From positions 124,001 to 188,000 of the forward strand of contig NZ_JAAGKO020000001.1 in NCBI RefSeq assembly GCF_027947535.2: a stretch of 64,000 nt of DNA. Direction: 5' to 3'. The position numbers and the translations under genes are program-made. The stretch is from Streptantibioticus silvisoli (GTDB lineage Bacteria; Actinomycetota; Actinomycetes; Streptomycetales; Streptomycetaceae). The notes under the pieces are model-generated. The model was not told where the DNA came from. It saw only the letters and a program-made list of their open reading frames with translations, and searched no databases. This document shows, piece by piece, positions 25,321 through 45,953 of this stretch (positions within the stretch are counted from its first letter, which is position 1; every line of letters begins with the position of its first letter).

Positions 25321-25431
25321 ATCGCGCTTCCTCTCCCCTGCCGCCTTCGGCTGCCCGCGCCTGACCGGTCGGGGGCATCGACGGCCCCCGGGAGCCCTGG
25401 CGGGCCGCCGGTACGGAGCGCCTGCCCCGGG

Positions 25432-27335: not shown

Positions 27336-27431
27336 GCCCGGACAAAGGCCAGAACGAAGGCCCGGACAAAGGCCAGAACGGAGGCCAGAACGGAGGCCAG
27401 GACAGAGGCGCGGACAGCGGCGCGGACGGAG
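27336..27431. repeat. 12-bp tandem repeat, eight units
   Basis: Eight contiguous 12-nt units of consensus GCC(C/A)GGACAAAG / GCCAGAACGGAG run from 27336 to 27431. On the plus strand they would encode a PDKGQNEG-type tetrapeptide repeat; on the minus strand they give a Trp/Pro-rich one. No surrounding frame is convincing as a gene, so I list it only as a minisatellite. Confidence 0.85.
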
Positions 27432-30477: not shown

Positions 30478-31635
30478 TCAGGCCCCCGGTGCCGGGGGCC
30501 ACACCGTGACGGTGTCGGGGGTGAGGTCGGTCAGGCGGGGGCGGCCGGCGAGGGTCATCGTCTGTTCCAGGTCCTCGCGCAGCAGGCGCAGGACCGCGGC
30601 CACCCCGTCGCGGCCGTCGTGGGCCAGGCCCCACAGGACCGGCCGGCCCACCAGCACCGTGCGGGCGCCCAGGGCCAGCGCCTTGGCGATGTCGCCGCCG
30701 GAGCGGATACCGCCGTCGAGGAGCACCGGTATCCGCTCCCCCACCGCGCCGGCGACCTCGGGCAGGGCGGCCAGCGGCGGGACGGCGCCGTCGAGTTGCC
30801 GGCCGCCGTGGTTGGAGACGATCACGGCGTCGACGCCGTGGTCGAGGGCGAGGCGGGCGTCCTCGGCGGTCAGCACGCCCTTCAGTACCAGGGGCAGCGG
30901 CGTCAGGGCACGCAGCCAGGCCAGGTCCGCCCAGGTGATCGCGGGGTCGAACTGGTCGCGGGACTGGGCCTCGATCGCGGAGGCGCCCCGGGTGCCGTAG
31001 GAGTTGGCGGACGGGACGGACGCGATGTTGACGGCGGCCAGCCGGTCCGGCAGCCGGAAGGAGTTGCGCACGTCGCGCAGCCGGCGGCCGACGCGCGGGG
31101 CGTCGACGGTCAGCACCAGCGCCCGGTATCCCGCGTCCGCGGCGCGGCGCACCACGTCGGCGAGTACGTCGCGGCGGCGCAGCCAGTACAGCTGGAGCCA
31201 CAGCGGGCCGGTCGCCGCCGCCGCGATGTCCTCGATCGTCTCGCCCGCCAGCATCCCCACCACGAACAGCGCCCCGGCCGCGCCGGCCGCCCGGGCGGTG
31301 GCCAACTCCGCCTCCGGGTGGGCCAGTCCGTGGTAGGCGAGCGGTGCCACGCCGATCGGGGCGGCCAGCCGGGCGCCGAGCAGTTCGACGCCCGGGTCGA
31401 CCGCGGAGACGTCGACCAGCACGCGGGGGCGCAGCGCGAGCCGCTGGAACTGGGCGCGGTTGGCAGCGAGCGTCCACTCCTCGCCCGCGGCGCCCTCGAT
31501 GAAGTCCCACACGTCGGCGGGCAGCCGGTCGCGGGCCGCGGCCTCCAGGTCCGCCAGGTCGAGCGGCTCACCGCGGTCCGCGGGCGTCACGCCGTCCGGT
31601 GCGGGACGCGGCCGGGTGCCGTCCCCCGTGGTCAC
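30478..31635 (-). CDS. hmo: 4-hydroxymandelate oxidase (FMN-dependent alpha-hydroxy acid oxidase)
   Basis: 385 residues from GTG 31635, which overlaps the HpgT stop by 4 nt. It is an FMN TIM-barrel oxidase of the glycolate/lactate/mandelate family: DLEAAARDRLPADVWDFIEG near the N-terminus, an LQLYWLRRRD strand, LVLTVDAPRVGRR, LPLVLKGVLTAEDA, and VIVSNHGGRQLDG with the active-site His-Gly-Gly-Arg. Together with the 4-hydroxymandelate synthase and HpgT-type aminotransferase in the same operon it should oxidise 4-hydroxymandelate to 4-hydroxyphenylglyoxylate. It is the last gene of the minus-strand run, and a hairpin overlaps its final codons. Confidence 0.88.
   Translation of the reverse strand: MTTGDGTRPRPAPDGVTPADRGEPLDLADLEAAARDRLPADVWDFIEGAAGEEWTLAANRAQFQRLALRPRVLVDVSAVDPGVELLGARLAAPIGVAPLAYHGLAHPEAELATARAAGAAGALFVVGMLAGETIEDIAAAATGPLWLQLYWLRRRDVLADVVRRAADAGYRALVLTVDAPRVGRRLRDVRNSFRLPDRLAAVNIASVPSANSYGTRGASAIEAQSRDQFDPAITWADLAWLRALTPLPLVLKGVLTAEDARLALDHGVDAVIVSNHGGRQLDGAVPPLAALPEVAGAVGERIPVLLDGGIRSGGDIAKALALGARTVLVGRPVLWGLAHDGRDGVAAVLRLLREDLEQTMTLAGRPRLTDLTPDTVTVWPPAPGA
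30481..30500 (-). terminator. Hairpin overlapping the end of hmo
   Basis: GGCCCCCGG-TG-CCGGGGGCC forms a near-perfect stem that includes codons just before the hmo stop. It is a plausible end of the long biosynthetic operon. Confidence 0.5.
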
Positions 31636-32927
31636 ACCGCCTCCCGCAGGAAGCCGGCGAGTCGGCGGACGCCTTCGGCGATGTCGGCCGGTTCCAGGCA
31701 ACTGCACGACAGGCGCAGGTCGTTGGTCCCTCCGCCGGCGGGGTGGAAGCCGGCCATCGGGGTCCACAGCACGCCCCACGCGCGGGCGCAGCGTTCCAGT
31801 GCGGCGTCGTCCGCGGTGAACGGCACGGTGACGACGGCGAAGAAGCCGCCTTCGGGCGCGTTCCAGTCCAGGCCGAGCGCGGTCCGCTCGGCGGCGGGGA
31901 AGGCGGCGTCGAGGCAGTCGAGCAGGGTGGCCATGTTGCGGGCGTAGAAGCGGCGGGAGCGTTCGTTGGCCTCGCGCAGCCGGAAGCCGTGGTGCAGCAG
32001 CATGCCGCCGATGACCGCCTGGCTGAGCGAGGGGGTGTTGACGGTGGTCATGCTCTTGAGCTTGGCGAGTTCGTCGGCGAGCAGGCCGCGCCGGCCGTCG
32101 GGGTGGACGACCTCCTGGTCGGCGACGACGTAGCCGAGCCGGGCGCCGGGGAAGCAGGTCTTGGCGAAGGAGCCCAGGTGGACGACGAGGCGGTCCGGGT
32201 CGAGGGCCTTGAGGGTGGGCCGGGGCAGCGGGTCGGTGCCGAAGAAGCCGTAGGGGTCGTCCTCGATGACCAGCAGGTCGTGCTCGGCGGCGGTGGCCAG
32301 CAGCCGGTGGCGGTCCTCGGTGGCCATGCTGGTGCCGGAGGGGTTGGCGAAGTCGGGCACGACGTAGAAGGCGCGTGGCCGGCGGCCGGCGGCCCGCAGC
32401 CGGGTGGCGGCCGCGGCGAGGGCGGCGGGGTCCGCGCCGCCGGGGCCCTCGGGGACGAACTCGACGGCGATGTCGAGCAGCCGGGCGGCGCCGGTGATGC
32501 CCACGTAGCAGGGCGAGCTGACCAGCAGGACGTCGCGGGGCGAGGCGAACAGCGCGCGCAGCACCAGCAGCATGCCCTCCTGGGCGCCGACGGTGACGAC
32601 GAGCGCCTCGGGGTCGACGCGCAGGTCCTCGTCGGCCTCCAGGGTCCGGGCGATCAGTTCGTGGACGATGCCCTTGGTGCGGCCGTACTGGAACAGTTCG
32701 GTACGCACCCGCTCCGACGGCATGCCGCGGTCCTTGGCGAGGTGTTCGAGGTAGGTGTCGAGGTAGGTGTGGACGGAGTCCACCTCGAAGAAGCCCTCGT
32801 AGGGGCGGCCGGGGGCGAAGGAGATCGCGTCCGGGTACCGGGTGGTGACCTCGTTGAGGAAGGTCATGGTGTCCAGCAGCGGGTCGGACAGCGAACCGTG
32901 CAGGTCCAGCGGGGTCAGCGCGGTCAC
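31632..32927 (-). CDS. hpgT: 4-hydroxyphenylglycine aminotransferase (HpgT-type, PLP)
   Basis: 431 residues from GTG 32927, overlapping the hydrolase stop (GTGA). Fold type I aminotransferase of the MocR/AAT class: TVGAQEGMLLVLRALF, YVVPDFANPSGTSMA, LLVIEDDPYGFF and the PLP-lysine motif LGSFAKTCFPGARLGYV. HpgT converts 4-hydroxyphenylglyoxylate to L-4-hydroxyphenylglycine with an amino donor such as tyrosine, regenerating 4-hydroxyphenylpyruvate. The assignment rests on fold plus linkage to the Hmo and HmaS homologues; by sequence alone another aromatic substrate remains possible. Confidence 0.82.
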   Translation of the reverse strand: MTALTPLDLHGSLSDPLLDTMTFLNEVTTRYPDAISFAPGRPYEGFFEVDSVHTYLDTYLEHLAKDRGMPSERVRTELFQYGRTKGIVHELIARTLEADEDLRVDPEALVVTVGAQEGMLLVLRALFASPRDVLLVSSPCYVGITGAARLLDIAVEFVPEGPGGADPAALAAAATRLRAAGRRPRAFYVVPDFANPSGTSMATEDRHRLLATAAEHDLLVIEDDPYGFFGTDPLPRPTLKALDPDRLVVHLGSFAKTCFPGARLGYVVADQEVVHPDGRRGLLADELAKLKSMTTVNTPSLSQAVIGGMLLHHGFRLREANERSRRFYARNMATLLDCLDAAFPAAERTALGLDWNAPEGGFFAVVTVPFTADDAALERCARAWGVLWTPMAGFHPAGGGTNDLRLSCSCLEPADIAEGVRRLAGFLREAV

Positions 32928-33895
32928 GGCCGGCCCTCCGCGACGGGGGCCGGAGCGGAGGCGGGGGCGTCGAGCGCGGTGCGCAGCCGGCCGGCGATCC
33001 AGGCGTGCGCCTCGCGGGCCTCCGCCAGGACGCCGGTCATGGTGAAGAAGCCGTGCGCCATGCCGTCGTAGCGCCGGGCGGCGACGGCGACCCCGGCGTC
33101 GCGGAGCCGGTCGGCGTACCGCTCCCCCTCGTCGCGCAGCGGGTCGTACTCGGCGGTGACGACGGTGGCCTCCGGCAGGCCGCCGAGGTCGGCGGCGCGC
33201 AGCGGGGAGGCCAGCGGGTCGGTGCCGTCGGCGCCGGCGAGGTAGTGCCCCCAGTACCAGGCGACCGAGTGCCGGTTGAACAGCAGCGGGTCGGTGTTCT
33301 CGCGGGCGGAGGGGGTGTCGGCGCGGTGGTCGGTGTTGGGGTAGACCAGGACCTGGTGGCGGATGGCCGGGCCGCCGCGGTCGCGGGCGAGCAGGGTGGT
33401 GGCGGCGGCCAGGTTGCCGCCGGCGCTGTCCCCGGCGACGGCCAGCCGCGCCGGGTCGCCGCCGAACCGCGCCGCGTTGCCGGCCGCCCAGCACAGCGCG
33501 GCGTAGCAGTCGTGGACGGCGGCCGGGAACGGGTTCTCCGGGGCGAGGCGGTAGCCGACGGCGATCGTGACGCATCCGGCGGCGTTGGCCAGCGAGCGGC
33601 AGACCGCGTCGCCGGTGTCGAGGCTGCCGAGCGTCCAGCCGCCGCCGAAGAAGTACAGCAGGACGGGCCGGCCGGGGACGGCGTCCGGCCGGTAGACGCG
33701 TACCGGCAGGTCGCCGTCCGGGCCGGGGATCGTCTCCTCGGCGAGCTGGTGCACCCGCTCCCCGGTGCCCGCGCCGGCGCGGATCGCCGCCAGGTCGGCG
33801 GCCCGCGCCTGGGCGAGCGTCAGTTCGTAGAGCGGCGGGGTGCCCTCGGCGGCCCGGTGGGCGCGCTGGGCCTGGAGTTGCGGGTGGAGCGGCAT
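32924..33895 (-). CDS. Alpha/beta hydrolase of the HSL type with altered oxyanion motif
   Basis: 323 residues, ATG 33895. Nucleophile elbow GDSAGGNLA, acid in YDPLRDEG and His in GMAHGFF are intact. In hormone-sensitive-lipase-type esterases the oxyanion motif is HGGG(W); here it reads YFFGGGWTLGS, with Phe in place of His. Position within the biosynthetic run suggests a role in ester or thioester cleavage, product release or acyl transfer. The substrate is unknown. Confidence 0.82.
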   Translation of the reverse strand: MPLHPQLQAQRAHRAAEGTPPLYELTLAQARAADLAAIRAGAGTGERVHQLAEETIPGPDGDLPVRVYRPDAVPGRPVLLYFFGGGWTLGSLDTGDAVCRSLANAAGCVTIAVGYRLAPENPFPAAVHDCYAALCWAAGNAARFGGDPARLAVAGDSAGGNLAAATTLLARDRGGPAIRHQVLVYPNTDHRADTPSARENTDPLLFNRHSVAWYWGHYLAGADGTDPLASPLRAADLGGLPEATVVTAEYDPLRDEGERYADRLRDAGVAVAARRYDGMAHGFFTMTGVLAEAREAHAWIAGRLRTALDAPASAPAPVAEGRP

Positions 33896-33929: not shown

Positions 33930-34724
33930 TCAGCGGCCGGGGAAGGAGGCGGTGATGGAGTCCCACAGCGCCACGCGGGCGGACAGCGCGTCGTGGACGG
34001 TACGGGCGCACTCCTCCCACTTGGCCCGGTCGTCGCCGCACAGGTCGATGAGCATCTGCATGGCCATCGGGGTGTGCATCTCGCCGTCGACCTCGATGTG
34101 CCGGGCGAGGTAGTCCTTGAAGACGGTCAGCGTGCCGGCCGTGTCCTCGATCCCGACGACCTGCTGGAACATCTCCGGGATCAGGTCCTCGCGGCCGAAG
34201 GCGAACGCGGCGGCCTGGCAGTGCACCGGGGCGGACTCGATGATCCCCCAGGTGGTGGTGACGAAGTCGGCCGCGCCCTGCGGTACTTCGGCGCGCTTGA
34301 GGGCTTCGGCGACGCCGGTCCCGTCGCGCAGCAGGCCGATGAAGGTGTCGATGGGCGTGGTGTCGGCGCCGGCGGCGGCCATGCCTTCGAGGTAGAGCTC
34401 GAAGTGGCTGATGTAGCCGTCGCCGTACTCGTCGCTCTCCTCGACCAGCACGATGTCGTTGATCAGCCGCCGGCTGGCGGTGGGCCCGCTGGGCACCCAG
34501 GGGACCTGGACGCAGGTGAGGTTGCGCTGAAGGGACTTCAGCAGGCACATGAAGTCCCAGACGGCGAAGACGTGGGTGCCGAGGAAGACCCGGACGCGCT
34601 CCAGGTCGTCCAGGGCGGTGTAGACGGGGTGGGCGACGACCTGTCCGCGTACCGGCTCGATGGCCTTCTGCAGGCTGACGAGTCCGGGGTGGGTGCGGTC
34701 CCAGTGGTAACGGCTGGCGGTCAT
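33930..34724 (-). CDS. DUF3050 protein, heme-oxygenase-like diiron oxidase candidate
   Basis: 264 residues from ATG 34724 with AAGGAGAA upstream. All-helical. Typical DUF3050 segments are [51 protein letters not shown], and [15 protein letters not shown]. Conserved Glu/His/Asp residues in the third to sixth helices could bind two metal ions as in heme-oxygenase-like diiron oxidases, a group that performs N-oxygenation, C-C cleavage and oxidative decarboxylation. DUF3050 itself has no assigned reaction that I know of. Within this operon it is a candidate for an oxidative step on an amino-acid- or aryl-derived intermediate. Confidence 0.78.
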
Positions 34725-34798: not shown

Positions 34799-35761
34799 TC
34801 ACTTCATGACGGCGCGGATGGCTCCGGTCAGCTGCCGGGCGTCCGGCTGGAGGGCGCGGTCGAGTTCGAGGGCGAAGGGCAGCACGGCGCCGTCCGGCCG
34901 GGTGACGCGCCGGGGCGGGGCGGTCAGCCGCATCTCCTCGGCGGCGGTGGCCATCACCTCCGCCGCGAAGCCGCACGCCCGGTTGGAGTCGTCGATGACG
35001 ACGAGCCGGCCGGTGCGCTCCAGCGACCGGCTCAGCGTGGCCCAGTCGAAGGGGTGGACGGTACGGGCGTCCACGACCTCGACGGAGATCTCCGGGGCGA
35101 GCTCCTCGGCGACGGCGAGCGCGCCGTGCACCGGGGCGCCGAGGGCGACCACCGTCACGTCGTCGCCTTGCCGGGCGATCCGGGCGCGGCCGAGCGGGAC
35201 GGGTTCCAGGTCCCAGGTGACGTCCTGGCGCACCCCCATGGCGGCGGCCGGCGCGAAGACGATCACCGGGTCGTCGTCGCGGATGGCGGAGGCCAGCAGC
35301 CCGTAGGCGTCGCTGGGGGTGGCCGGGACGACGGTCTTGATGCCGACGTGCGCGAACAGGCTGTAGGGGTGGTCGGAGTGCTGGCCGGCCCAGCCCTCGC
35401 GCGATCCGGACCCGGGCACCAGGCAGGTCAGCGGCACGGAGGTCTGACCGCCGGTCATCAGCGACAACTTGTGGGCCTGGTTGGCGAGTTGTTCGAACGT
35501 CAGGAAGAGCAGCGAGGGGATCTGGAGTTCCACCACCGGGCGGCGGCCGGCCAGGGCTGCGCCGATGGCCATCGACACGAACGCCTGCTCCGACAGCGGG
35601 GTGTCGACCACCCGGTCGGTGCCGAACCGGGCCTGGAGGCCGAGGGTCGGTCCGGCGAGGCCGGCGCCCACGTCCTCGCCGAAGACGCACACCGACTCGT
35701 CGGCCGCCAGCGCGTCGCCGAGCGCCCGGTTGAGCGCCTTGGTGTAGGACAGCTTGCTCAC
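34799..35761 (-). CDS. Thiamine-diphosphate E1 beta subunit (2-oxoacid dehydrogenase type)
   Basis: 320 residues from GTG 35761, overlapping the E1 alpha stop (GTGA). Transketolase pyrimidine and C-terminal domains of E1 beta: ALGDALAADESVCVFGEDVG, VDTPLSEQAFVSMAIGAALA, FEQLANQAHKLSLMTGGQ, DARTVHPFDWATL. With the alpha subunit it would form an alpha2beta2 enzyme that decarboxylates a 2-oxo acid and holds the acyl anion equivalent on the cofactor. No lipoyl E2 or E3 gene is in the window, so the acceptor is not the usual lipoamide unless it is borrowed from elsewhere. Confidence 0.9.
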   Translation of the reverse strand: MSKLSYTKALNRALGDALAADESVCVFGEDVGAGLAGPTLGLQARFGTDRVVDTPLSEQAFVSMAIGAALAGRRPVVELQIPSLLFLTFEQLANQAHKLSLMTGGQTSVPLTCLVPGSGSREGWAGQHSDHPYSLFAHVGIKTVVPATPSDAYGLLASAIRDDDPVIVFAPAAAMGVRQDVTWDLEPVPLGRARIARQGDDVTVVALGAPVHGALAVAEELAPEISVEVVDARTVHPFDWATLSRSLERTGRLVVIDDSNRACGFAAEVMATAAEEMRLTAPPRRVTRPDGAVLPFALELDRALQPDARQLTGAIRAVMK

Positions 35762-36759
35762 AGCGTCACCCCCGCCCGGGGGCGCAGGCCGTCGGCGTAC
35801 AGGTAGTCGCAGGCGCCGGAGATGTCGGGGGCGGGGCTGGCGAGCGCGAACGTGCGGGCGTCGGCCAGCAGTTGGCCGATCCCGGCGTCGATGCGGTCGG
35901 CCTCGCCGGGGTCGAGTGCGGCGGCGGCGCGCGGGAGCGGGTCGCGCTCCCGCCAGCCGGCCACCTCCTCGGCGGTGCGGTAGCCGAGCTTGAGGCGGCG
36001 CTCCATCGTGTGGTGTCCCTCGAACCGGTAGGTGCGGCACTCCAGGAAGGACGGCCCGTCGCCCGCCCGGGCCCGTTCGACGGCGCCGGCGGCGGCCGCC
36101 AGCACCGCCTCGCAGTCCATGCCGTCCACGGTCTGCGCCGGGATGCCGAACGCCCGGGCCCGCTCGACCGCGCCGCCGGCCACCGCGCCGGCGGCCGGCA
36201 AGGTGGTGGCGTAGCCGTTGTTCTCGCAGACGAACAGCACCGGCAGCCGCCAGATGGCGGCGAGGTTGAAGGTCTCCAGCAGGACGCCCTGGTTGAGGGC
36301 GCCGTCGCCGAAGAAGGCGGTGACGACGGTGTCGCGGCCGGCGCGGGCCTCGGCCCAGGCGGCGCCGGCGGCGATCGGGGCGCCGGCGCCGACGATGCCG
36401 TTGGCGCCGAGGATGCCCAGCGAGAAGTCGGCGGCGTGCATCGAGCCGCCGCGGCCGCGGTTGAGTCCGGTGACCCGGCCGGCCAGTTCGGCCAGCATGC
36501 GGTGCGGTGACGCGCCCTTGGCCAGCACGTGCCCGTGCCCGCGGTGGGTGCTGGTGATCAGGTCGCCGTCGCGCAGTGCGGCGCACACTCCGACGGCGAC
36601 GGCCTCCTGCCCGATGTAGGGGTGGATGCCGCCGGCGATGACGCCCTCGCGTACCAGGTCCAGGGCCTGCTCCTCGAAGCCGCGCACCAGCCGCATGGCG
36701 CGGTAGCGGTCGGCCGGCTCCGCCAGCGGGAGGTGGTGGGGCGGTGCGGTCGGTGTCAT
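35758..36759 (-). CDS. Thiamine-diphosphate E1 alpha subunit (2-oxoacid dehydrogenase type)
   Basis: 333 residues from ATG 36759; this start gives the 4-nt ATGA overlap with the upstream oxygenase gene, whereas a GTG 12 nt earlier does not. Thiamine-diphosphate fold: YIGQEAVAVGVCAALRDGDL, STHRGHGHVLAKG, GRGGSMHAAD, and the cofactor motif FFGDGALNQG ending in CENNGYA. Family members act on pyruvate, branched 2-oxo acids or acetoin. Here 4-hydroxyphenylglyoxylate or 4-hydroxyphenylpyruvate, both made in the same pathway, are the obvious candidate substrates (inference). Confidence 0.9.
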   Translation of the reverse strand: MTPTAPPHHLPLAEPADRYRAMRLVRGFEEQALDLVREGVIAGGIHPYIGQEAVAVGVCAALRDGDLITSTHRGHGHVLAKGASPHRMLAELAGRVTGLNRGRGGSMHAADFSLGILGANGIVGAGAPIAAGAAWAEARAGRDTVVTAFFGDGALNQGVLLETFNLAAIWRLPVLFVCENNGYATTLPAAGAVAGGAVERARAFGIPAQTVDGMDCEAVLAAAAGAVERARAGDGPSFLECRTYRFEGHHTMERRLKLGYRTAEEVAGWRERDPLPRAAAALDPGEADRIDAGIGQLLADARTFALASPAPDISGACDYLYADGLRPRAGVTL

Positions 36760-37679
36760 CGGGATCGCCACACCACCGGGCAGAAGTCCGGGTCGGCGTA
36801 GTCGGGCTCCGCGGGGCGGCCGGCGGTGGCCTCGGTGCGGCGCACCAGGACGTCGTGGTTGTAGACCAGCGGGCTGCCGTCCGGGCGCAGGTGGGGGCGG
36901 TAGCGGTTGTCGCCGTCCTGGAGGTGGACGGAGACCGCGCGGCGCGGGCGGTCGGACCGGTTGGGGCCGCTGCCGTGGTAGGTGGCGCAGCTGTGGAAGC
37001 TGACGTGGCCGCGCGGGATGGTGACCGGGACCTTGCGGATGGTGTCGCCGTTGAAGTGGGCGGTCCGCTCCAGGATCTCCTCCAGCTCGGCGCGGTCGCG
37101 GCGGGCGAAGTGCCGGGTGGAGTCGTCGGTGCTGGTCTCCTTCCAGCGGTGGCTGCCGTCGATCATGGTGATGGTGCCCATCTCCTCCCCGCAGTCGTGG
37201 AAGGGGACGAACGCGGTCAGCATCCGCTCGGAGGTGCAGGTCTGCCAGTAGTGCCGGTCGATGTGCCAGGGCACCAGGTTGCTGGGCTCGGCCGGGTTCG
37301 GCGGCTTGTAGATCATGGTGGCCTGGAAGACCCGGATCTCCTCGGTGCCGGCCAGCGCGGCGGCGACCGCGCCGAGCAGCGGCTTGCGCAGGATGCGGCC
37401 GATCTCGTCGCTCTCGTAGTGCACGTAGTCGTTGTGCCGGTGGATCGGGCCGTCGGACGGCTGCCAGGAGGCGAGGTACGGCGGCCGGACGGGCAGCTGC
37501 CGGTCGCGGTGGCCGGCGTAGTACTGGTCGCTGGCCTGCGTGAGGGCGTCGAGTTCGGCGTCGTCGAACAGCCGGCGCGAGAGGTACCAGCCGTGTTCGG
37601 CGTAGAAGGCGACGTCCTCGGCGGTGGGCAGCAGGCGGGTCTCGGCGTCGGTGAGGGTCAGGTCGGCCGTGCTGGTCAC
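36756..37679 (-). CDS. Phytanoyl-CoA dioxygenase (PhyH) family Fe(II)/2-oxoglutarate oxygenase
   Basis: 307 residues from GTG 37679 with GAAAGGA upstream. Jelly-roll oxygenase with the iron triad WHIDRHYW (His-x-Asp) and FHSCATYHGSGPN (distal His), followed by Arg in RPRRAVSVHLQ for 2-oxoglutarate. PhyH enzymes hydroxylate or otherwise oxidise aliphatic C-H bonds, often on carrier-bound or free amino acids in natural-product pathways. 29 nt separate it from HmaS, and it overlaps E1 alpha by 4 nt. Confidence 0.87.
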   Translation of the reverse strand: MTSTADLTLTDAETRLLPTAEDVAFYAEHGWYLSRRLFDDAELDALTQASDQYYAGHRDRQLPVRPPYLASWQPSDGPIHRHNDYVHYESDEIGRILRKPLLGAVAAALAGTEEIRVFQATMIYKPPNPAEPSNLVPWHIDRHYWQTCTSERMLTAFVPFHDCGEEMGTITMIDGSHRWKETSTDDSTRHFARRDRAELEEILERTAHFNGDTIRKVPVTIPRGHVSFHSCATYHGSGPNRSDRPRRAVSVHLQDGDNRYRPHLRPDGSPLVYNHDVLVRRTEATAGRPAEPDYADPDFCPVVWRSR

Positions 37680-37708: not shown

Positions 37709-38722
37709 TCAGGTGGTGGCGACGGCCTGTTGGCGCTCGACGGCCTCGTACAGCGCCTTGATGTTCGCGGTGCCGAAGGTGGCGGCGCCGCGGCGTTCGA
37801 TCAGCTCGAAGAAGAAGGTGTGGCGCGAGTGGACCGAGCGGGTGAAGATCTGCAGCAGGTGCCCGCCGTGGTCCTGGTCGACCAGGACGTGCAGTTCGCG
37901 CAGGGCGGCCACCGGGATGCCGCTGTCGGCCGCGAGCCGTTCGGCCAGCGCGTCGTAGTAGGTGCCCGGGGTGGTCAGGAAGCCGACGCCGCGCTCGGAG
38001 CAGGTGCGGACGGTGCGGGCGATGTCGTCGGTGCGGAACGCCACGTGCTGGACGCCGACTCCCTGGTGGGCCTTGAGGAAGTCGTCGATCTGGCCGGGCG
38101 GGCGGCGGGTGTCGGGCTCCAGCAGGGTGAACGTGACGGTGCCGGAGGGGTTCTGGACCACGACGGAGTCCATGCCCTGGGCGCCGACCTCGATGTACTC
38201 GCTGAAGATCGGGCGGAACCCCAGGCCGTCCTCGCAGAAGCGGACCGCGTCGGCCATGGTGCCGGACGGGACGCAGATGGCGAGGTGGTCGATCGCGTCG
38301 AGCAGCCCGGCGCCGGCCGGGGCGGGGAAGGCGGCTTCGGCGGCCGGGTCGCCGTCCTGGACGAAGCGCAGCGCGACGTCGTCGAAGCCGGCGACCGTGC
38401 GGGTGCCGGCGTCCAGCAGCCGGGCGCCGTGGGCGAGCGCGCGGTCCAGGGTCGCGGCGGCGTCCGGGCAGGCCAGCGCGACGACCGCGACCCCGTCGCC
38501 GTGGCGGGCGACGTAGTCGGCGGCCCGGTGGGCGGGGTCGGTGCTGGAGGTCAGCCGCAGGCGGATGCCGCCCTGGACCGCGGGCACCGACCGGGTGCCG
38601 GCGGTGCCGTCGGTGTCCTCGACGGGGCCGGCGGTGAAGCCGAAGCCGTCGGCGAGGTCGGCGGCGGCGCGCTCGGCGTCCCCCACGTAGAACTCGACAT
38701 GGTCGATCCGTTGCACACTCAC
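37709..38722 (-). CDS. hmaS: 4-hydroxymandelate synthase (HPPD-fold, Fe(II))
   Basis: 337 residues from GTG 38722, overlapping the KS1 stop (GTGA). Two-domain vicinal-oxygen-chelate fold with iron ligands His146 (IDHLAIC), His226 (VQHVAF) and Glu306 (FFFELIERRGA). The segments EYIEVGAQGMDSVVVQNPSG and HTFFFELIERRGAATFG then TANIKALYEAVE resemble HmaS of glycopeptide producers more than 4-hydroxyphenylpyruvate dioxygenase, and two aryl-glycine pathway partners are in the same operon. It should convert 4-hydroxyphenylpyruvate and O2 to 4-hydroxymandelate and CO2. Confidence 0.88.
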   Translation of the reverse strand: MSVQRIDHVEFYVGDAERAAADLADGFGFTAGPVEDTDGTAGTRSVPAVQGGIRLRLTSSTDPAHRAADYVARHGDGVAVVALACPDAAATLDRALAHGARLLDAGTRTVAGFDDVALRFVQDGDPAAEAAFPAPAGAGLLDAIDHLAICVPSGTMADAVRFCEDGLGFRPIFSEYIEVGAQGMDSVVVQNPSGTVTFTLLEPDTRRPPGQIDDFLKAHQGVGVQHVAFRTDDIARTVRTCSERGVGFLTTPGTYYDALAERLAADSGIPVAALRELHVLVDQDHGGHLLQIFTRSVHSRHTFFFELIERRGAATFGTANIKALYEAVERQQAVATT

Positions 38723-39993
38723 GGTGTGTCCCCCTCCGGAACTCTCGGGGCGGCCGTGCCGGCCGGCCCGAACAGCAGGCTGATGTTGTGCCCGCCGAAG
38801 GCGAACGAGTTCGACAGCGCGGCGCGCACCCGGGTGTGGCGCGGGGCGGCGCGGACGTGGTCCAGCTCGCAGTCGGGGGCGGGCGCGTCGAGGTTGGCGG
38901 TCGGCGGCAGGACGCCGTGGGCGACGGACAGCACGGTGGCGACGGCCTCGACCGCCCCCGAGGCGCCGAGCAGGTGGCCGGTGTTGCCCTTGACGGAGCT
39001 GACCGCCGGGCCGGTGTCGCCGAAGACGGTGTGCAGCGCGGCGGTCTCGGCGCGGTCGCCGAGCTTGGTGCCGGTGCCGTGCGCGTTGACGTGGTCGATG
39101 TCGCCGGGGGCCAGGCCCGCGTCGTCGATCGCCCGGCGCACGCAGGCGGCGGCGCCCTCGCCGTCCGGGCGCGGGCTGGTGGGGTGGTGGGCGTCGGTCG
39201 TGGCGCCCCAGCCGATCAGGTCGGCGTACCCGGTGGCGCCGCGCGCGGCCGCGAAGTCGGTGCGTTCCAGCACCAGTACGGCGGCGCCCTCGCCGAGCAC
39301 GAAGCCGTTGCGGCGCTCGTCGAACGGGCGGCTGGCCTGCGCCGGGTCCTGCCAACCGGAGGCCAGCGCACGGGTGTTGGCGAAGGCGGAGGCGATGGTG
39401 GGGTGCAGTGAGGACTCCGAGCCGCCGCACACCACCACGTCGGCGTCGCCGGCCCGCAGCAGCCGCAGCCCTTCGGCGATCGACTGGGCCCCGGCGGCGC
39501 AGGCGGTGGAGACCGCCGAGCTGTACCCGCGGATGCCGTGCCGGATCGCGATGCGGGCCGAGGCCATGTTGGCGAGCATCCCCGGCAGCAGGTACGGGCT
39601 GACGCCGGGCCGGCCGCGCTCCAGGCGCCGGTGGGACTGCTCCTCGAAGGTCTGTAGCCCGGCGCCGCCGCTGGAGACCACGACCGCCACCCGGTAGGGG
39701 TCCACGTCCCGGCCGACGACGATCCCGCTGTCGGCGAGGGCGTCCTCGGCGGCGGCCAGCGCCATCAGCACGAAGCGGTCGACGCAGCGGCCCTCCTTGG
39801 GCGGCAGCACCTCCAGCGGGTCGACGGCCGGCGCGATCCCGGCCGACTCCAGCCAGCCGGCGGCCGGGTGGCCGTCGGGCGGCCGCACCAGGCCGGAGCG
39901 GCCGGTCAGCAGGGCGTCGAAGAACTCGGCGGGCTTGCGGCCGACCGGGGTGACCACGCCCAGGCCGGTGACGGTGGCACCGGGCCGGTTCAC
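38719..39993 (-). CDS. Ketosynthase KS1 (FabF-like), intact active site
   Basis: 424 residues from GTG 39993, overlapping the AMP-ligase stop. Thiolase fold of the FabF/type II KS family with Cys165 (VSTACAAGAQ), His305 (NAHGTGT), Lys335 and His340 (SVKGNTGHLLGAS). It should catalyse decarboxylative Claisen condensation between an acyl group on its Cys and a malonyl-type carrier protein. No acyltransferase, ketoreductase or dehydratase is encoded nearby, so reduction would need the host fatty-acid enzymes or does not occur. Confidence 0.9.
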   Translation of the reverse strand: MNRPGATVTGLGVVTPVGRKPAEFFDALLTGRSGLVRPPDGHPAAGWLESAGIAPAVDPLEVLPPKEGRCVDRFVLMALAAAEDALADSGIVVGRDVDPYRVAVVVSSGGAGLQTFEEQSHRRLERGRPGVSPYLLPGMLANMASARIAIRHGIRGYSSAVSTACAAGAQSIAEGLRLLRAGDADVVVCGGSESSLHPTIASAFANTRALASGWQDPAQASRPFDERRNGFVLGEGAAVLVLERTDFAAARGATGYADLIGWGATTDAHHPTSPRPDGEGAAACVRRAIDDAGLAPGDIDHVNAHGTGTKLGDRAETAALHTVFGDTGPAVSSVKGNTGHLLGASGAVEAVATVLSVAHGVLPPTANLDAPAPDCELDHVRAAPRHTRVRAALSNSFAFGGHNISLLFGPAGTAAPRVPEGDTP

Positions 39994-41609
39994 CGGGCGC
40001 CGCCCTGGGCGGAGTGCCGGTCGCGCAGCAGGACCTTGCGGACCTTGCCGGTCGGGCCGAGCGGGATGCGCCCGTCGGCGGCGGTCGTCACCTCGCGCAG
40101 GGTGGCGGCCACCTCGGGCGGCAGGGCGGCGGCGACCTCCTTGGCCCAGTCGCGGCCCGGGTCGGCGCCGTCGCGCGGCTGGACCAGGACGTCGGTGACG
40201 ACCCGGCCGTCCTCGCGCAGCGCGACGAAGGTGCAGTCGAGGATGTCGGGGCACGCGGCGAGGACCGCCTCCTCCGACACCGCGGTGTACAGCCGCCGGC
40301 CGCCGCCGAGGTCGACCGCGTCGACCGCGCGGTCCAGGTGGTAGTAGTAGCCCTCCTCGTCGCGGTACACCAGGTCGCCGGTCAGGAAGTAGCCGCGTAC
40401 CCGGGTGCGGTAGGTGGTGACGGAGTCGTTCCAGTAGCCGAGGGCGAGGGTGGGCGAGCGGGTGCCGAGTTCGCCGACCTGTCCGGCGGGCAGTTCCTCC
40501 CCGTCCGGGCCGAGCACCGCGCAGTCGACGAAGGCGTGCGGGCGGCCGACGCAGCGGCCGTAGCGCTCGGTGTCGGGGGTGTGGGTGATGAAAAAGTGCG
40601 AGTGCCCCATCTCGGTGGAGCCCAGGCCGTCGACGAACACCGACCCGGGCAGCGTGACGCGGCCCTGCCGGGTGACGGACTGCCGGGACCCGGCGGCGAT
40701 CAGCCGGCGGATGTGCGCCTCGTGGGCGCAGTCGCCGGTGTTCCACCACAGCGCGACGCTGCCGGTGCGCCGGGCGCCGAGGTCGTGGCGGGCCAGGTCG
40801 GCCCAGGTGGTGGCGAACCCGATGACGCCGCGCGGCTGCCAGCTCTCGATCGCCTCCAGGACCGCGTCGCCGGTCTGGCTCGACAGCAGGGAGATCTCGG
40901 CGTGGGTGCTCAGCGCCAGGTTGACCGCGATCAAGGTGGCGGCGTGCGGGGCGGGCAGCACGCTGAGCATCCGCTCCGAGCCCTGCGGACGCGGCAGCGA
41001 CAGGCGGTGCCGGACGGCCGCGTACAGGCTCGCGTGCGAGTGGACGACCGCCTTGGGCAGGCCGGTCGTACCGGAGGAGTGGGTGATGGCGACCGGGTCG
41101 TCCGCCCAGTGGCGGTACGGCTCGGGGGCGTCGGCCGGGTCGTGCGTGGCCGGCGCGGACAGGTCGGGCAGCAGCGGGGCGCCGGTGTCGCGGCCGGTCA
41201 GCAGGGCGTGCCGCTCGGTGTCGGCCAGCACGGCGGCAGCCCGCAGCCGGCCGATGTAGATGACGGCCTTGTCCGGGTCGAGGCGCGGGTTGACCAGGGC
41301 GGGGATGGCGCCGAGCCGGGCGAGGGCGAGGAAGCTCAGGACGTGGTCGGCCGCGGTGCCCGCCCACACCGCCACCGGGTCGCGGGGCCGGATGCCCTCG
41401 GCGTGCAGCGCGGCGGCCCGGGCGCGCACGGCGCGGTCGAGTTGGCGCACCGTGAGGGCCTCGCCCGCGCGGTGGGTGTCGATGGCGCTGTCGAAGGTGA
41501 TCAGCGGGACGTCGAGGCCGGTGTCCAGGGCCATCAGGGTGGTCAGCACGTTGCCCGCGCCCACGGCTGGATCGCTGGCGAGCTGTGCGCGGATCGTCTT
41601 GGCGCTCAC
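39990..41609 (-). CDS. AMP-forming acyl/aminoacyl ligase (second of three)
   Basis: 539 residues from GTG 41609. Adenylate-forming fold: P-loop ITHSSGTTGLPKAVVHSH, GLGSTEMGHSHFF, YFLTGDLVYRDEEGYYY and catalytic Lys in GPTGKVRKVLL near the C-terminus. It is embedded between the KS-N-like gene and KS1 with 4-nt overlaps on both sides. It should activate a carboxylic acid as adenylate and load CoA or one of the two carrier proteins. Candidate acids are 4-hydroxyphenylglycine, 4-hydroxybenzoate or a fatty acid; sequence alone does not decide. Confidence 0.88.
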   Translation of the reverse strand: MSAKTIRAQLASDPAVGAGNVLTTLMALDTGLDVPLITFDSAIDTHRAGEALTVRQLDRAVRARAAALHAEGIRPRDPVAVWAGTAADHVLSFLALARLGAIPALVNPRLDPDKAVIYIGRLRAAAVLADTERHALLTGRDTGAPLLPDLSAPATHDPADAPEPYRHWADDPVAITHSSGTTGLPKAVVHSHASLYAAVRHRLSLPRPQGSERMLSVLPAPHAATLIAVNLALSTHAEISLLSSQTGDAVLEAIESWQPRGVIGFATTWADLARHDLGARRTGSVALWWNTGDCAHEAHIRRLIAAGSRQSVTRQGRVTLPGSVFVDGLGSTEMGHSHFFITHTPDTERYGRCVGRPHAFVDCAVLGPDGEELPAGQVGELGTRSPTLALGYWNDSVTTYRTRVRGYFLTGDLVYRDEEGYYYHLDRAVDAVDLGGGRRLYTAVSEEAVLAACPDILDCTFVALREDGRVVTDVLVQPRDGADPGRDWAKEVAAALPPEVAATLREVTTAADGRIPLGPTGKVRKVLLRDRHSAQGGAR

Positions 41610-42184
41610 GGGTGCGGGTTTCCCTTCGGCGGCGCTGTCAGGCGCGGTGGTACGGGGTGCGGTGCCGGTGCGAGCAGCCGGGCGCGGGCCTCGCCCGGGG
41701 TGCCGGCGGCGGCGTCGGCGGCGATGACGAGTACCTCGGTGGCGTCGCCGTCCAGCAGCAGGAGTTCGGCGGCGGCCAGGGCGGCGGGCAGGGCGTCGGC
41801 GTCGGCGGTCCTGACGCAGCTGACCGGTCCGCGCAGCCCCCAGCGGGCGGCGACGTGGCCGGCCACGGCGTTGGGGTTGGACTGGAAGAACAGCAGCGGC
41901 TGGACCCGGCTGCCGTCGGCGACGGCCCGGCCGACGGCGTCGGCGGTCGCGGTGTCGCCGTCGGCGCTGGCCAGCACGATCGCGGTGCGTTCCAGCCGCC
42001 GCGGGTCGGCGGTCTCCGGTGTCCCGTGGGCGGCGCGCAGGCAGCGGTCGGCCACCGCGGCGACGAGCGGGTTGAACGGCGAGACGATGAACCCGGGGAT
42101 GCGCGGCGGCTGTTGGTCGTCCGGTTCGGGCCAGCGCGCCTCGGCCAGGGTCACCGGCCCGGTGGGCGGCGCGGCGGCGCTCAC
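41606..42184 (-). CDS. Stand-alone beta-ketoacyl-synthase-like N-terminal domain protein
   Basis: 192 residues from GTG 42184, overlapping the KS2 stop (GTGA). The stretch ERTAIVLASADGDTATADAV and the FFQSNPNAVAGHVAARWGLR segment resemble the N-terminal half of KS/chain-length-factor-like proteins (Ketoacyl-synt_2 type in aryl-polyene clusters), but the C-terminal half with the His residues is absent. The nucleophile region reads GPVSCVRTADAD and is not canonical. It may be a structural partner of KS1 or KS2. Confidence 0.6.
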   Translation of the reverse strand: MSAAAPPTGPVTLAEARWPEPDDQQPPRIPGFIVSPFNPLVAAVADRCLRAAHGTPETADPRRLERTAIVLASADGDTATADAVGRAVADGSRVQPLLFFQSNPNAVAGHVAARWGLRGPVSCVRTADADALPAALAAAELLLLDGDATEVLVIAADAAAGTPGEARARLLAPAPHPVPPRLTAPPKGNPHP

Positions 42185-43296
42185 GCGGCGGCCTCCACCA
42201 GCAGGGCGGTGTTGGCGCCGCCGAAGGCGGAGTTGAGGCTGAGCGCGTACCGCGGCCGGGCCTCGCGGGGGGCGTGCAGGACCAGGTCGAGCCGGCAGTC
42301 GTCGGCGCTGCCGAGGTATCCGGCGTTGACCGGCAGCAGGCCGGCCCGCAGGGACTCGACGGTGACGGCGAACTCCAGCAGGGCGGACGCCTCCAGGGCG
42401 TGGCCGTGCACGGACTTGGTGGAGCTGACCGGCGGCCCGTCGCCGGGGCCGAACACCGCGTGCAGCGCCCGGGTCTCGGCGGCGTCGGCGAGCACGGAGC
42501 CGGTGCCGTTGGCGTTGACGTAGCCGACGTCGCCGGGCGCCACCCCGGCCCGGGCCAGCGCCGCGGTGACGGCGCGGGCGAGCCCGGCGCCGTCGGGGGC
42601 GGGACGGCAGACGTGGTGGGCGTCGCCGGTGCGTCCCCAGCCGGCCAGCGCGGCCAGCGGCCGCACCCCGCGCGAGTGGGCGGACCCCGCGGTCTCCAGG
42701 ACGACGGCGACCACGGCGTCGCCGAGGAGCGGTCCGCGCCGGTCGCGGCTGAACGGGCGCACCTCGCCGTCGCGCGAGAGCGCGCTCGCGGCGTCGAAGA
42801 GCGCGTACGTGTCGGGTTCGACCAGGTAGCCGGCCGCGACGACGGCCGTCTGCGCGCGGCCGGCGGTCAGCAGGACGGCGGCGTCGGCCAGGGCGCCGCT
42901 GGAGGCGGTGCAGGCGCCGACGGCGGTGCTGGTGACGGCGGGCAGGCCGACGGTGTCGCGCACGGCCGCGCCGACCTCGGCGACGGTCGCGGCGGTGCGC
43001 GTGTCGCTGTGCAGGGCGAGCAGCAGCGGGGCGCGGCCGGCCTGTTCGCGGTCGAGCCCGGCGCCGGCCGCGGCCTCGCCGACGACCCGGGTCAGCTCGG
43101 CGGCCAGCCGGGGGGCGCCGGGCAGGTGCGCGGCGTGCCGGACCCGGCGGCCGGCCACGTCGAACCGGGTGACCGGCGCGAACGCCGGCTTGCCGGCCCA
43201 GGCGGCCTCGACGAGCGGCCCGGTGCCGTCGCCGAGGGCGGACAGCACGGCGAGGCCGGTGACGACGACCTGCCGTGCCGGATCGCCGCCCGGCAT
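42181..43296 (-). CDS. Ketosynthase KS2 with His-to-Asn change in the active site
   Basis: 371 residues, ATG 43296, one nt after the stop of the second carrier-protein gene. Thiolase fold with Cys129 (AVGACTASSG), Lys294 and His299 (STKSVHGHALEAS), but the first His of the usual NAHGT motif is Asn263 (YVNANGTGS). FabF-type enzymes need both His for malonyl decarboxylation; the change suggests a non-elongating acyl transferase, a chain-length-factor-like subunit or a condensing enzyme with another donor. It is shorter than KS1. Confidence 0.82.
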   Translation of the reverse strand: MPGGDPARQVVVTGLAVLSALGDGTGPLVEAAWAGKPAFAPVTRFDVAGRRVRHAAHLPGAPRLAAELTRVVGEAAAGAGLDREQAGRAPLLLALHSDTRTAATVAEVGAAVRDTVGLPAVTSTAVGACTASSGALADAAVLLTAGRAQTAVVAAGYLVEPDTYALFDAASALSRDGEVRPFSRDRRGPLLGDAVVAVVLETAGSAHSRGVRPLAALAGWGRTGDAHHVCRPAPDGAGLARAVTAALARAGVAPGDVGYVNANGTGSVLADAAETRALHAVFGPGDGPPVSSTKSVHGHALEASALLEFAVTVESLRAGLLPVNAGYLGSADDCRLDLVLHAPREARPRYALSLNSAFGGANTALLVEAAA

Positions 43297-43297
43297 C

Positions 43298-43555
43298 TCA
43301 GCGTCCTTCCGCGGGGGCGGCCGCCGCGGGCAGCAGGGCGCCGAGCACCCGCACCGCGTCGTCCACGGTCCACACCGCGTCGAGGGCGTCCTCGGGCAGT
43401 TCGACCGTGATGCCGTAGCGCTGTTCGACCTCGGTGACCAGCCAGGTCAGCTCCAGCGACCCGATCTCCTCGTCCACGGCGGACGGATCGCGGTCGCCGA
43501 AGGCGGCGAGCATGCCGATGACCGCGGCGCGGTCGAACGGTGGGAGCAGGCTCAC
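43298..43555 (-). CDS. Acyl carrier protein 2
   Basis: 85 residues from GTG 43555 (GTGA overlap with carrier protein 1). Four-helix carrier pattern with the phosphopantetheine Ser in EEIGSLELTWLVTEVEQRYG and a C-terminal helix WTVDDAVRVLGAL. The Ser is preceded by Gly instead of Asp. It should shuttle acyl or aminoacyl thioesters for the adjacent ketosynthases and ligases. Confidence 0.85.
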   Translation of the reverse strand: MSLLPPFDRAAVIGMLAAFGDRDPSAVDEEIGSLELTWLVTEVEQRYGITVELPEDALDAVWTVDDAVRVLGALLPAAAAPAEGR

Positions 43556-43818
43556 GCGTTGTCCCCGACGCCGACGGCGGCCATCTGGGCCACCTTGGCG
43601 GTGAACTCGTCGAGGGTCATCAGCGCGGTGCTCTCCATGTCGTCGTCGGCGATCTTGACCCCGAACTCGTCCTCGACCTGGATGGCGAGTTCCGCCAGGG
43701 CGAGCGATTCGAGGTCGAGGCCGGCGGGACCGAGATCGGTGTCGCCGGTCACCTCGCTGACGTCGTAGTTCATGTCGTTCAGGGCGTTGACCACGAAACG
43801 GCGTACGGCGTCCTGCAC
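43552..43818 (-). CDS. Acyl carrier protein 1
   Basis: 88 residues from GTG 43818, which has GAGGAGGA 5 nt upstream; the frame stays open far upstream but that part is compositional. Carrier-protein helices with the attachment Ser in AGLDLESLALAELAIQVEDE and a C-terminal helix TLDEFTAKVAQMAA. It is the first gene after a 700-nt leader that holds three 66-bp direct repeats. Confidence 0.88.
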   Translation of the reverse strand: MQDAVRRFVVNALNDMNYDVSEVTGDTDLGPAGLDLESLALAELAIQVEDEFGVKIADDDMESTALMTLDEFTAKVAQMAAVGVGDNA

Positions 43819-44525: not shown

Positions 44526-45953
44526 TCACGCGCTGGGAGCCATCTGTTCGCCGGCCGCGCGCAGCGCCTCGGCGGACCGCAGCAGTTTGCCGGTGTTGGT
44601 GCGCGGCAGCCGGGGCAGCGCCCGCAGGGTGCGGGGCACCTTGTAGCCGGCGATCCGGGCGGCCAGTCGCCCGCGCGCCTCCTGCGGGCTGGTGGTCGCG
44701 TCGAGTTCGGCGTACGCGCGGATGGCGCCGTTGTCGAAGACCAGGACGCACTCGGTGACGCCGGGCACCTCGCGCAGGGTCTGCTCGACCTCGTTGAGGT
44801 CCACCTTCAGGCCGCCGACCGACACCTGGGAGTCGCGCCGGCCCAGGACCACCACCCGGCCGGTGTCCGGGTCGATCTCGGCGGCGTCACGGGTGTGCAG
44901 CCAGCCGTCCGACCAGCGGTCGGCCGCGACGGTCCCCAGGTAGGGGTTGTCCGGCCGGCGGATGTGCAACTCACCGTCGCGCACGATGAGTTCGTGGCCG
45001 TGGGCCGGGGTGAGGGCGGGGTGGGCGGTGCCGTCGAGGTCGGTGGCGATCACGCCCAGCTCGGTCATCCCGTACATCGTGCCGAGCGGAACGCCGTAGC
45101 GCTCGCGGAAGGCCTGCGGCACCGCGGGGCGCACGAGTTCGCCGGCCACGATCATCCGCACCAGCGAGGGGGTGGGCGGCGGCTGGGCGATCGCGGTGAG
45201 CAGCTGGGCGTGGAACGGGACGCCGATGACGGTGGTGGGCCGCTCGCCGGCCCGGACCGCGTCGAGGATGCCGTCGCCGGTCAGGCGGTCGGGCAGCACG
45301 AGTTCGGCGCCGGCGTGCAGCGCGTGCAGCAGTCCGCCGACCAGGCCCAGGACGTGGACCATCGACGACAGCAGCACCACGCGCCCACCGCGGCGCGGGA
45401 AGTCCGGCATCCGGGCGTAGCGGTCGAGTTCGGCGGCCAGGTCCGCGCCGGTGCGGGCGATCACCTTCGACGGTCCGGTGGAGCCGGAGCTGAGCTGGAT
45501 CAGCCGGTGTTCGCCGGCCGCCGGGCGTCCGCCGGGGCGGCCGGTGACGACGACCGGGGCCTCGACGTAGCCGCGCAGCGCGGCGCCGGGGGGCGTGGGG
45601 CCGTCCTCCACCAGGACCTGCGGGGCGAGGCGGTCCAGGGCCGCCGCGGTCTCGGCGGCGGACAGCCGGTGGTCGAGCAGCGCGACCTGGGCGCCTTCGC
45701 GCCAGCCGGCGAGCAGGGTCACCACGAACTCCAGCGACGGGCCCATGCTCAGCGCGGCGGTGCCGTCCGGGGTGAGTCCCGCCGCGCGCAGCCGCAGCTG
45801 CCGCTCGGCGACGAGCCGCCGCAGGGTGCCGCGGTCGGTGGGTGTGCCGAACCGCAGGCAGTCGTCCGTGTCGGGGCCCGCAAGAAGAAGGTCGTCCACC
45901 CAGCTCTCCGGCCGCTCCTGGGGACCGCCGCAGCGGGTTGTGTGATCGTTCAA
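44526..45953 (-). CDS. AMP-forming acyl/aminoacyl ligase (first of three)
   Basis: 475 residues from TTG 45953, chosen because TTGGGGA lies 5-6 nt upstream and no other start fits. Short adenylate-forming fold: P-loop LIQLSSGSTGPSKVIARTG, LGTMYGMTELGVIATD, WLHTRDAAEIDPDTGRVVVL and Lys in LPRTNTGKLLRSAEAL. It is separated from the rest of the operon by the 700-nt leader and is divergent from the third ligase. It should make an acyl-adenylate for CoA or carrier-protein loading; substrate unknown. Confidence 0.87.
   Translation of the reverse strand: MNDHTTRCGGPQERPESWVDDLLLAGPDTDDCLRFGTPTDRGTLRRLVAERQLRLRAAGLTPDGTAALSMGPSLEFVVTLLAGWREGAQVALLDHRLSAAETAAALDRLAPQVLVEDGPTPPGAALRGYVEAPVVVTGRPGGRPAAGEHRLIQLSSGSTGPSKVIARTGADLAAELDRYARMPDFPRRGGRVVLLSSMVHVLGLVGGLLHALHAGAELVLPDRLTGDGILDAVRAGERPTTVIGVPFHAQLLTAIAQPPPTPSLVRMIVAGELVRPAVPQAFRERYGVPLGTMYGMTELGVIATDLDGTAHPALTPAHGHELIVRDGELHIRRPDNPYLGTVAADRWSDGWLHTRDAAEIDPDTGRVVVLGRRDSQVSVGGLKVDLNEVEQTLREVPGVTECVLVFDNGAIRAYAELDATTSPQEARGRLAARIAGYKVPRTLRALPRLPRTNTGKLLRSAEALRAAGEQMAPSA

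What the first reader, a model, noticed from the sequence alone, without database searches (positions are those of the whole stretch)
33930..34724. DUF3050 protein as candidate diiron oxidase in a natural-product operon
The helical layout with Glu/His/Asp positions resembles heme-oxygenase-like diiron oxidases, a class that yields unusual chemistry (N-oxidation, fragmentation). DUF3050 has no assigned reaction that I know of, and the coupled pathway offers aryl amino-acid substrates.
Basis: inference. Interest (0 to 1): 0.68.

Follow-up and report, generated by a model that had tools for sequence, protein, structure and literature searches.

The report
HamA-type diiron oxidase beside diazotase ligase
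The gene encodes a predicted iron-and-oxygen enzyme of the HamA (DUF3050) kind, sitting at the end of a conserved but unstudied Streptomyces-family antibiotic-type operon that makes 4-hydroxyphenylglycine and carries a relative of the enzymes that join two nitrogen atoms, so it probably oxidises an amine on the way to a reactive nitrogen group.

Summary
The ORF is real (33930-34724, minus, 264 aa) and is a full DUF3050/PF11251 protein. The model is confident (pLDDT 94.7), and its best PDB match is 9VWB, "HamA, a heme-oxygenase-like enzyme" (38% identity, Z 31), followed by HrmI, CADD and UndA. The six expected dimetal ligands (E95, H107, E179, H209, D213, H217) are conserved in nearly all of 72 homologues and in HamA. 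The claim is not new in kind: the diiron prediction dates from 2015, and HamA/MgoB are DUF3050 proteins of diazeniumdiolate clusters.

New here is the setting. The operon makes 4-hydroxyphenylglycine and contains a ligase closest to ATP/nitrite-dependent N-N enzymes (diazotase CmaA6, then Tri17). This ligase lies within 8 kb of DUF3050 at 39 of 71 DUF3050 loci in 395 Streptomycetaceae genomes. Some sister clusters carry nitrosuccinate-lyase-type nitrite genes and flavohaemoglobin.

Best explanation: a HamA-type HDO oxidising an amine nitrogen on a carrier-bound, Hpg-derived intermediate. The reaction class is inferred, not shown. Near-identical clusters lack DUF3050, so it is a tailoring enzyme rather than core. 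C-C cleavage or desaturation remains a serious rival.

The parts
33930..34724 (-). DUF3050 / HamA-type heme-oxygenase-like dimetal oxidase (264 aa); predicted ligands E95, H107, E179, H209, D213, H217
34799..35761 (-). ThDP-dependent E1 beta subunit (2-oxoacid dehydrogenase type)
   Evidence: conserved next to DUF3050
35758..36771 (-). ThDP-dependent E1 alpha subunit
36756..37679 (-). PhyH-type Fe/2-oxoglutarate oxygenase (SnoN/SnoK-like by sequence)
37709..38716 (-). 4-hydroxymandelate synthase (closest PDB chain 2r5v, PCZA361.1, well above S. avermitilis HPPD 1t47)
38719..39993 (-). FabF-type ketosynthase
39990..41609 (-). ATP-dependent diazotase-family ANL ligase (CmaA6/AvaA6/Tri17-like)
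41606..42184 (-). partial ketosynthase-like protein, AmcG-like
42181..43296 (-). ketosynthase/CLF-like protein, AmcF-like
43298..43555 (-). carrier protein 2 (short ACP-like ORF, assigned from its sequence and place)
43552..43818 (-). carrier protein 1 (short ACP-like ORF, assigned from its sequence and place)
44526..45899 (-). AMP-ligase 1 (place of the AvaA1/CmaA1 acyl-ACP ligase)
32924..33895 (-). alpha/beta hydrolase (Abhydrolase_3), conserved in the cluster family
31632..32927 (-). PLP aminotransferase, HpgT-like in context
30478..31635 (-). FMN alpha-hydroxyacid oxidase, hydroxymandelate-oxidase-like in context
46438..47964 (+). third AMP-ligase, divergent; homologue (49-51%) beside DUF3050 in L087, L088, L092

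Best explanation
The protein is a HamA-subfamily heme-oxygenase-like dimetal oxidase (HDO). Two irons (or Fe/Mn) held by E95, H107, E179, H209, D213 and H217 would activate O2. It acts as a late or side tailoring enzyme in an operon that makes L-4-hydroxyphenylglycine (hydroxymandelate synthase, hydroxymandelate oxidase, aminotransferase), loads an acyl or aminoacyl group on a carrier protein, and carries a diazotase-family ligase that would use ATP and nitrite. The most likely reaction is oxidation at nitrogen of the carrier-bound, Hpg-derived amine (hydroxylamine, oxime or nitroso level) or help in N-N bond closure, as proposed for HamA in fragin and valdiazen. Step by step: HDO fold and ligand set, shown by sequence and model; metal binding and O2 use, inferred from family (about 0.9); biosynthetic role in this operon, inferred from conserved linkage (about 0.85); N-centred chemistry, inferred from HamA and the diazotase neighbour (about 0.45); substrate Hpg on a carrier protein, a guess (about 0.3).
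For: Fold: pLDDT 94.7; best match 9VWB HamA, Z 31.2, rmsd 2.3 over 245 residues, then HrmI (N-oxygenase), CADD and UndA at Z 21-22. Sequence: 9VWB E = 2.9e-53. Ligands: all six are identical in HamA; four are invariant in 72 homologues and E179 and H217 are kept in 71 of 72; they match the six of the 2015 diiron model by a constant offset of 2. Linkage: 39 of 71 DUF3050 loci have the CmaA6-like ligase within 8 kb, against about 0.3% by chance per locus. Ligase: CmaA6 diazotase is the nearest structure (398 bits, about 38%), then Tri17 (299 bits); apart from one FadD entry at 258 bits, ordinary acyl ligases score 106 bits or less. Gene order ligase-ACP-ACP-KS-CLF-diazotase parallels ava/cma. 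Sister clusters L118 and L127 carry nitrosuccinate-lyase-like and CreE-like genes. Flavohaemoglobin adjoins five sister loci. HamA is placed before the dihydrosydnone N-oxide and is described as not needed for hydroxylamine formation.
Against: Eight near-identical clusters examined (L121-L128) have the ligase but no DUF3050, so DUF3050 is not needed for the ligase's own chemistry. In three of them a PLP decarboxylase fills the DUF3050 slot, which fits carbon chemistry as well. HamA's usual partner HamC (AurF family) is not in the window's cluster; AurF proteins lie on other contigs. This genome has a CreE-like protein but no nitrosuccinate lyase. HamA's own reaction is labelled putative in the review held. 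Distances between the ligands were not measured.
Confidence: 0.45

Rival explanations
1. The same dimetal enzyme, but carbon-centred chemistry: oxidative decarboxylation, C-C fragmentation or desaturation of an amino-acid or acyl intermediate, as in UndA, BesC or MboA.
For: UndA and CADD are as near in fold as the N-oxygenase HrmI. In L121, L125 and L127 the operon slot after E1-beta holds an Orn/DAP-type PLP decarboxylase instead of DUF3050. Characterised HDOs include many C-C and desaturation reactions.
Against: The nearest relative by far is HamA, tied to N-N chemistry, and the linked ligase is diazotase-like.
Confidence: 0.3
2. A protective or redox accessory (oxidative or nitrosative stress) that travels with a nitrite-using cluster and does not act on the pathway intermediate.
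For: Many non-actinobacterial DUF3050 genes sit among unrelated genes, and some Streptomyces-family copies stand alone. Flavohaemoglobin with an Rrf2 regulator adjoins some sister loci.
Against: Position inside the biosynthetic operon, short gaps, and a constant 6-7 kb distance to the ligase in most linked loci.
Confidence: 0.13
3. CADD-like enzyme that supplies an arylamine (self-sacrificing or on a tyrosine-derived substrate) as the substrate for the diazotase-like ligase.
For: CADD is among the nearest folds (Z 22.1). Characterised diazotases of the ava/cma type act on arylamines and no arylamine synthase was seen in the window.
Against: Only 17% identity to CADD; clusters without DUF3050 keep the ligase.
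Confidence: 0.05
4. A metal-free heme-oxygenase-fold protein (TenA or PqqC type).
For: TenA and PqqC share the fold at Z 17-20.
Against: All six dimetal ligands are kept in nearly all of 72 homologues.
Confidence: 0.03

Closest known systems
HamA / MgoB (PvfA) of the fragin, mangotoxin (mgo) and Pseudomonas pvf clusters
   Same: Same Pfam family over full length, 38% identity to HamA 9VWB, all six ligands and the neighbouring invariant residues shared.
   Different: HamA works beside an AurF N-oxygenase, an A-T-R NRPS and a cyclase on L-valine. The window instead has an Hpg pathway, type II carrier proteins and ketosynthases, and a diazotase-family ligase; no AurF in the cluster.
HDO superfamily (UndA, BesC, SznF, HrmI, CADD, AetD, PolF, MboA)
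   Same: Fold and 3-His/3-carboxylate set by sequence.
   Different: 10-17% identity in the structural alignments; DUF3050 is its own branch; reaction unknown.
ava/cma avenalumic and p-coumaric acid clusters
   Same: Order ligase-ACP-ACP-KS-CLF-diazotase and ligase about 38% identical to CmaA6.
   Different: 3,4-AHBA synthase genes and the AvaA7 denitrifying enzyme were not seen; Hpg genes, E1, PhyH and DUF3050 are added. The window also has no nitrite genes, a lack shared by about half of the reported ava-type clusters.

Membership tests
DUF3050 / HamA subfamily (PF11251) | full-length match over the curated cut-off | tested here: met
   314.6 bits against 22.2, profile 2-233/233; HamA 9VWB E = 2.9e-53
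DUF3050 / HamA subfamily (PF11251) | HamA-type cluster partners (AurF N-oxygenase, NRPS) | tested here: not met
   AurF-family genes lie on other contigs only; no NRPS in the operon. A context feature, not part of the protein family definition
Heme-oxygenase-like dimetal oxidases (HDO) | heme-oxygenase-like helical fold | tested here: met
   HamA Z 31.2; HrmI, CADD and UndA Z 21-22
Heme-oxygenase-like dimetal oxidases (HDO) | 3-His/3-carboxylate ligand set on the core helices | tested here: met
   E95, H107, E179, H209, D213, H217 conserved. By sequence; distances not measured
Heme-oxygenase-like dimetal oxidases (HDO) | binds two metals and activates O2 | not testable with these tools
   needs purified protein
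SznF-like 3H/4C HDO N-oxygenases | seventh ligand (extra Glu from an auxiliary helix) | tested here: inconclusive
   E96 and D98 are invariant and E211 is frequent, but geometry is unknown; no cupin domain in this protein
ATP-dependent diazotases (CreM/AvaA6/CmaA6/Tri17), for the linked ligase | closest to diazotases rather than acyl ligases | tested here: met
   NCBIfam AvaA6 461 bits (below its cut-off of 975); PDB CmaA6 398 bits, Tri17 299
ATP-dependent diazotases (CreM/AvaA6/CmaA6/Tri17), for the linked ligase | nitrite-dependent N-N bond formation | not testable with these tools
   indirect only: nitrosuccinate-lyase-like genes beside sister clusters; none in this genome
4-hydroxyphenylglycine pathway | hydroxymandelate synthase rather than HPPD | tested here: met
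   2r5v (PCZA361.1) 286.6 bits against S. avermitilis HPPD (1t47) 187.7

The most novel reading that the evidence does not exclude
A HamA-type diiron oxidase and a CmaA6-type nitrite-dependent ligase work in sequence on carrier-bound 4-hydroxyphenylglycine, giving an aryl-glycine-derived N-N group (diazeniumdiolate, nitroso or diazo) in a widespread, uncharacterised Streptomyces-family metabolite class; it would be an HDO and a diazotase cooperating in one pathway, a combination I found no report of.
Probability: 0.22. Interest if true: 0.82.

Novelty: new variant of a known kind. Interest (0 to 1): 0.55.

Why it matters
HamA-type DUF3050 proteins have a structure and genetic links to N-N metabolites but, in the papers I could read, no proven reaction. 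This operon offers a different, well-defined setting with a likely substrate pool (Hpg), carrier proteins, a diazotase relative and natural with/without comparisons (L121-L128 lack DUF3050), which makes the reaction directly testable. About one sampled Streptomycetaceae genome in six holds a close homologue of the ligase (68 of 395 at E <= 1e-150; some of these may be ava-type clusters), so the metabolite class may be common.

Tried and rejected
A Foldseek search with the AF2 model of the diazotase-like ligase is not evidence of fold (pLDDT 43); I used it only to read the titles of entries already found by sequence. A search for the AurF partner of HamA found it on other contigs only. No nitrosuccinate lyase in this genome, so a local nitrite pathway is not claimed. 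Neighbours of distant DUF3050 genes gave no common partner. The DUF3050 tree does not make the cassette members one clade. A heme oxygenase role was rejected: the dimetal ligand set fits the HDOs. A literature search found no paper naming this cluster. The library holds open-licence papers only, so no paper behind 9VWB could be read.

Full report
What is there. The ORF at 33930-34724 (minus, 264 aa, ATG, good ribosome site) is a complete DUF3050 protein (PF11251, E = 5e-94) with a weaker match to Haem_oxygenas_2. It sits inside a tight minus-strand operon: AMP-ligase, two carrier proteins, two AmcF/AmcG-like ketosynthase proteins, a second AMP-ligase, a FabF-type ketosynthase, an HPPD-like enzyme, a PhyH oxygenase, E1 alpha, E1 beta, DUF3050, alpha/beta hydrolase, aminotransferase and FMN hydroxyacid oxidase. 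It is the only DUF3050 in the genome.

Fold and metal site. The AlphaFold2 model from 36 homologues has pLDDT 94.7 and pTM 0.91. The best solved structure is 9VWB, titled 'HamA, a Heme-Oxygenase-Like Enzyme' (38% identity, Z 31.2, rmsd 2.3 over 245 residues); next come the N-oxygenase HrmI, CADD and UndA at Z 21-22. By sequence alone only HamA is found (E = 2.9e-53). Across 72 homologues from many phyla, E95, E96, D98, H107, Y111, R178, Y205, R208, H209, D213 and R250 are invariant and E179 and H217 are kept in 71 of 72; HamA has all of them. The six residues assigned to the diiron centre in a 2015 homology model of DUF3050 (Glu93, His105, Glu177, His207, Asp211, His215 as numbered in PMC4520260) correspond to E95, H107, E179, H209, D213 and H217 by a constant shift of two. 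In the model H209, D213 and H217 lie about one turn apart on one long helix (200-229), E95 and E179 near helix ends, and H107 at a helix start. Distances were not measured, because the tools return no coordinates.

'No assigned reaction' needs qualifying. MgoB of the mangotoxin operon is DUF3050 (PMC3298696), and 9VWB, titled HamA, is a DUF3050 protein; HamA belongs to the fragin cluster (PMC5878181). A 2024 review lists HamA and/or HamE as putative N-N enzymes (PMC11705231). HamA (PvfA) is described as not needed for hydroxylamine formation (PMC11659414), and hamA mutants make fragin when fed the dihydrosydnone N-oxide, which puts HamA between those two points.

Context in relatives. An operon with the order ligase1-ACP1-ACP2-ksC-ksN-ligase2-KS-HmaS-PhyH-E1a-E1b-DUF3050 recurs, with small losses, in the relatives. 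Hmo, HpgT and the hydrolase lie on the far side of ligase1 in most of them. The HPPD-like gene is closer to hydroxymandelate synthase 2r5v (286.6 bits) than to S. avermitilis HPPD 1t47 (187.7 bits), so this is an Hpg pathway.

The telling neighbour. Ligase2 (39990-41609) has ATP-dependent diazotase CmaA6 as its nearest solved relative (398 bits, about 38%), then Tri17 (299 bits) and one FadD entry (258 bits); other acyl ligases score 106 bits or less. Its best NCBIfam model is the AvaA6 diazotase, at 461 of a 975-bit cut-off, so it is a relative, not an equivalog. The first six genes follow the published ava/cma order. In 395 Streptomycetaceae genomes, 39 of 71 DUF3050 loci have this ligase within 8 kb; by chance about 0.3% of loci would. 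Loci are related to each other, so this is a measure of conserved linkage, not 39 independent events.

Nitrite hints. Sister clusters L118 and L127, both without DUF3050, carry genes best matched by the nitrosuccinate-lyase model (560 and 509 bits on cut ORFs, cut-off 650) beside CreE-like FAD proteins. Flavohaemoglobin lies beside the cluster in L082, L090, L091, L094 and L128 (identified by Pfam in L091 and L128, by sequence family in the others), with an Rrf2-type regulator confirmed in L091. This genome itself has a CreE-like protein on another contig but no nitrosuccinate lyase.

Limits. Eight clusters examined (L121-L128) keep the same operon but lack DUF3050; in L121, L125 and L127 a PLP Orn/DAP-type decarboxylase holds its place. 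L114 and L115 have DUF3050 but no E1 pair. So DUF3050 is a swappable tailoring enzyme, not needed for the core or for the ligase. The tree shows DUF3050 of the cassette type in one actinobacterial clade together with standalone copies.

Judgement. HDO membership at the level of fold and ligands is well supported and was foreseeable from the literature. A role in this biosynthetic operon is likely. N-centred oxidation is the best single guess because of HamA and the diazotase neighbour, but carbon chemistry is a real rival. The combination of Hpg pathway, diazotase-family ligase and HamA-type HDO was not found in the papers searched, and it is worth a bench test.

Noticed in passing
L118:15172-18590; L127:1-3064: CreE-like FAD protein plus nitrosuccinate-lyase-like gene (nitrite-forming pathway) next to sister clusters that lack DUF3050.
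   Followed up: partly
L121:18586-19782; L125:2945-4213; L127:3225-4571: Orn/DAP-type PLP decarboxylase in the operon slot otherwise held by DUF3050 (Pfam run on the L121 copy; the other two judged from their sequence starts).
   Followed up: partly
L091:8952-10793; L128:16564-17739; also L082, L090, L094: Flavohaemoglobin, with an Rrf2-type regulator in L091, beside the cluster; suggests nitrosative stress from the pathway.
   Followed up: partly
L034:8808-12194 (similar gene order in L035, L036): DUF3050 with a Rieske protein, a 4Fe-4S ferredoxin, a cupin and an aldehyde dehydrogenase: possible redox partners for a DUF3050 oxidase in another Streptomyces operon.
   Followed up: no
L093:1598-10394 (Kitasatospora mediocidica, second copy): Second DUF3050 of the same genome beside a methyltransferase, glycosyltransferase, carrier protein, class II tRNA-synthetase-like protein and condensation-domain protein.
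   Followed up: partly
L101:10693-16375: Additional block in some sister clusters: KASIII-like, ACP, phosphopantetheinyl transferase, tRNA-synthetase-like and free condensation domains.
   Followed up: no
L097:10481-12747: DUF3050 next to a cyclodipeptide synthase and an AMP-ligase.
   Followed up: no
window 41606-43296: Two ketosynthase-like proteins that each match only part of a ketosynthase (AmcG/AmcF-like), beside a full FabF-type ketosynthase at 38719-39993.
   Followed up: no
window about 24980-25380 and 27310-27420: Short repeated motifs (for example RGCRSGTAGP, GQNGGQDRG) in several frames, likely tandem repeats.
   Followed up: no
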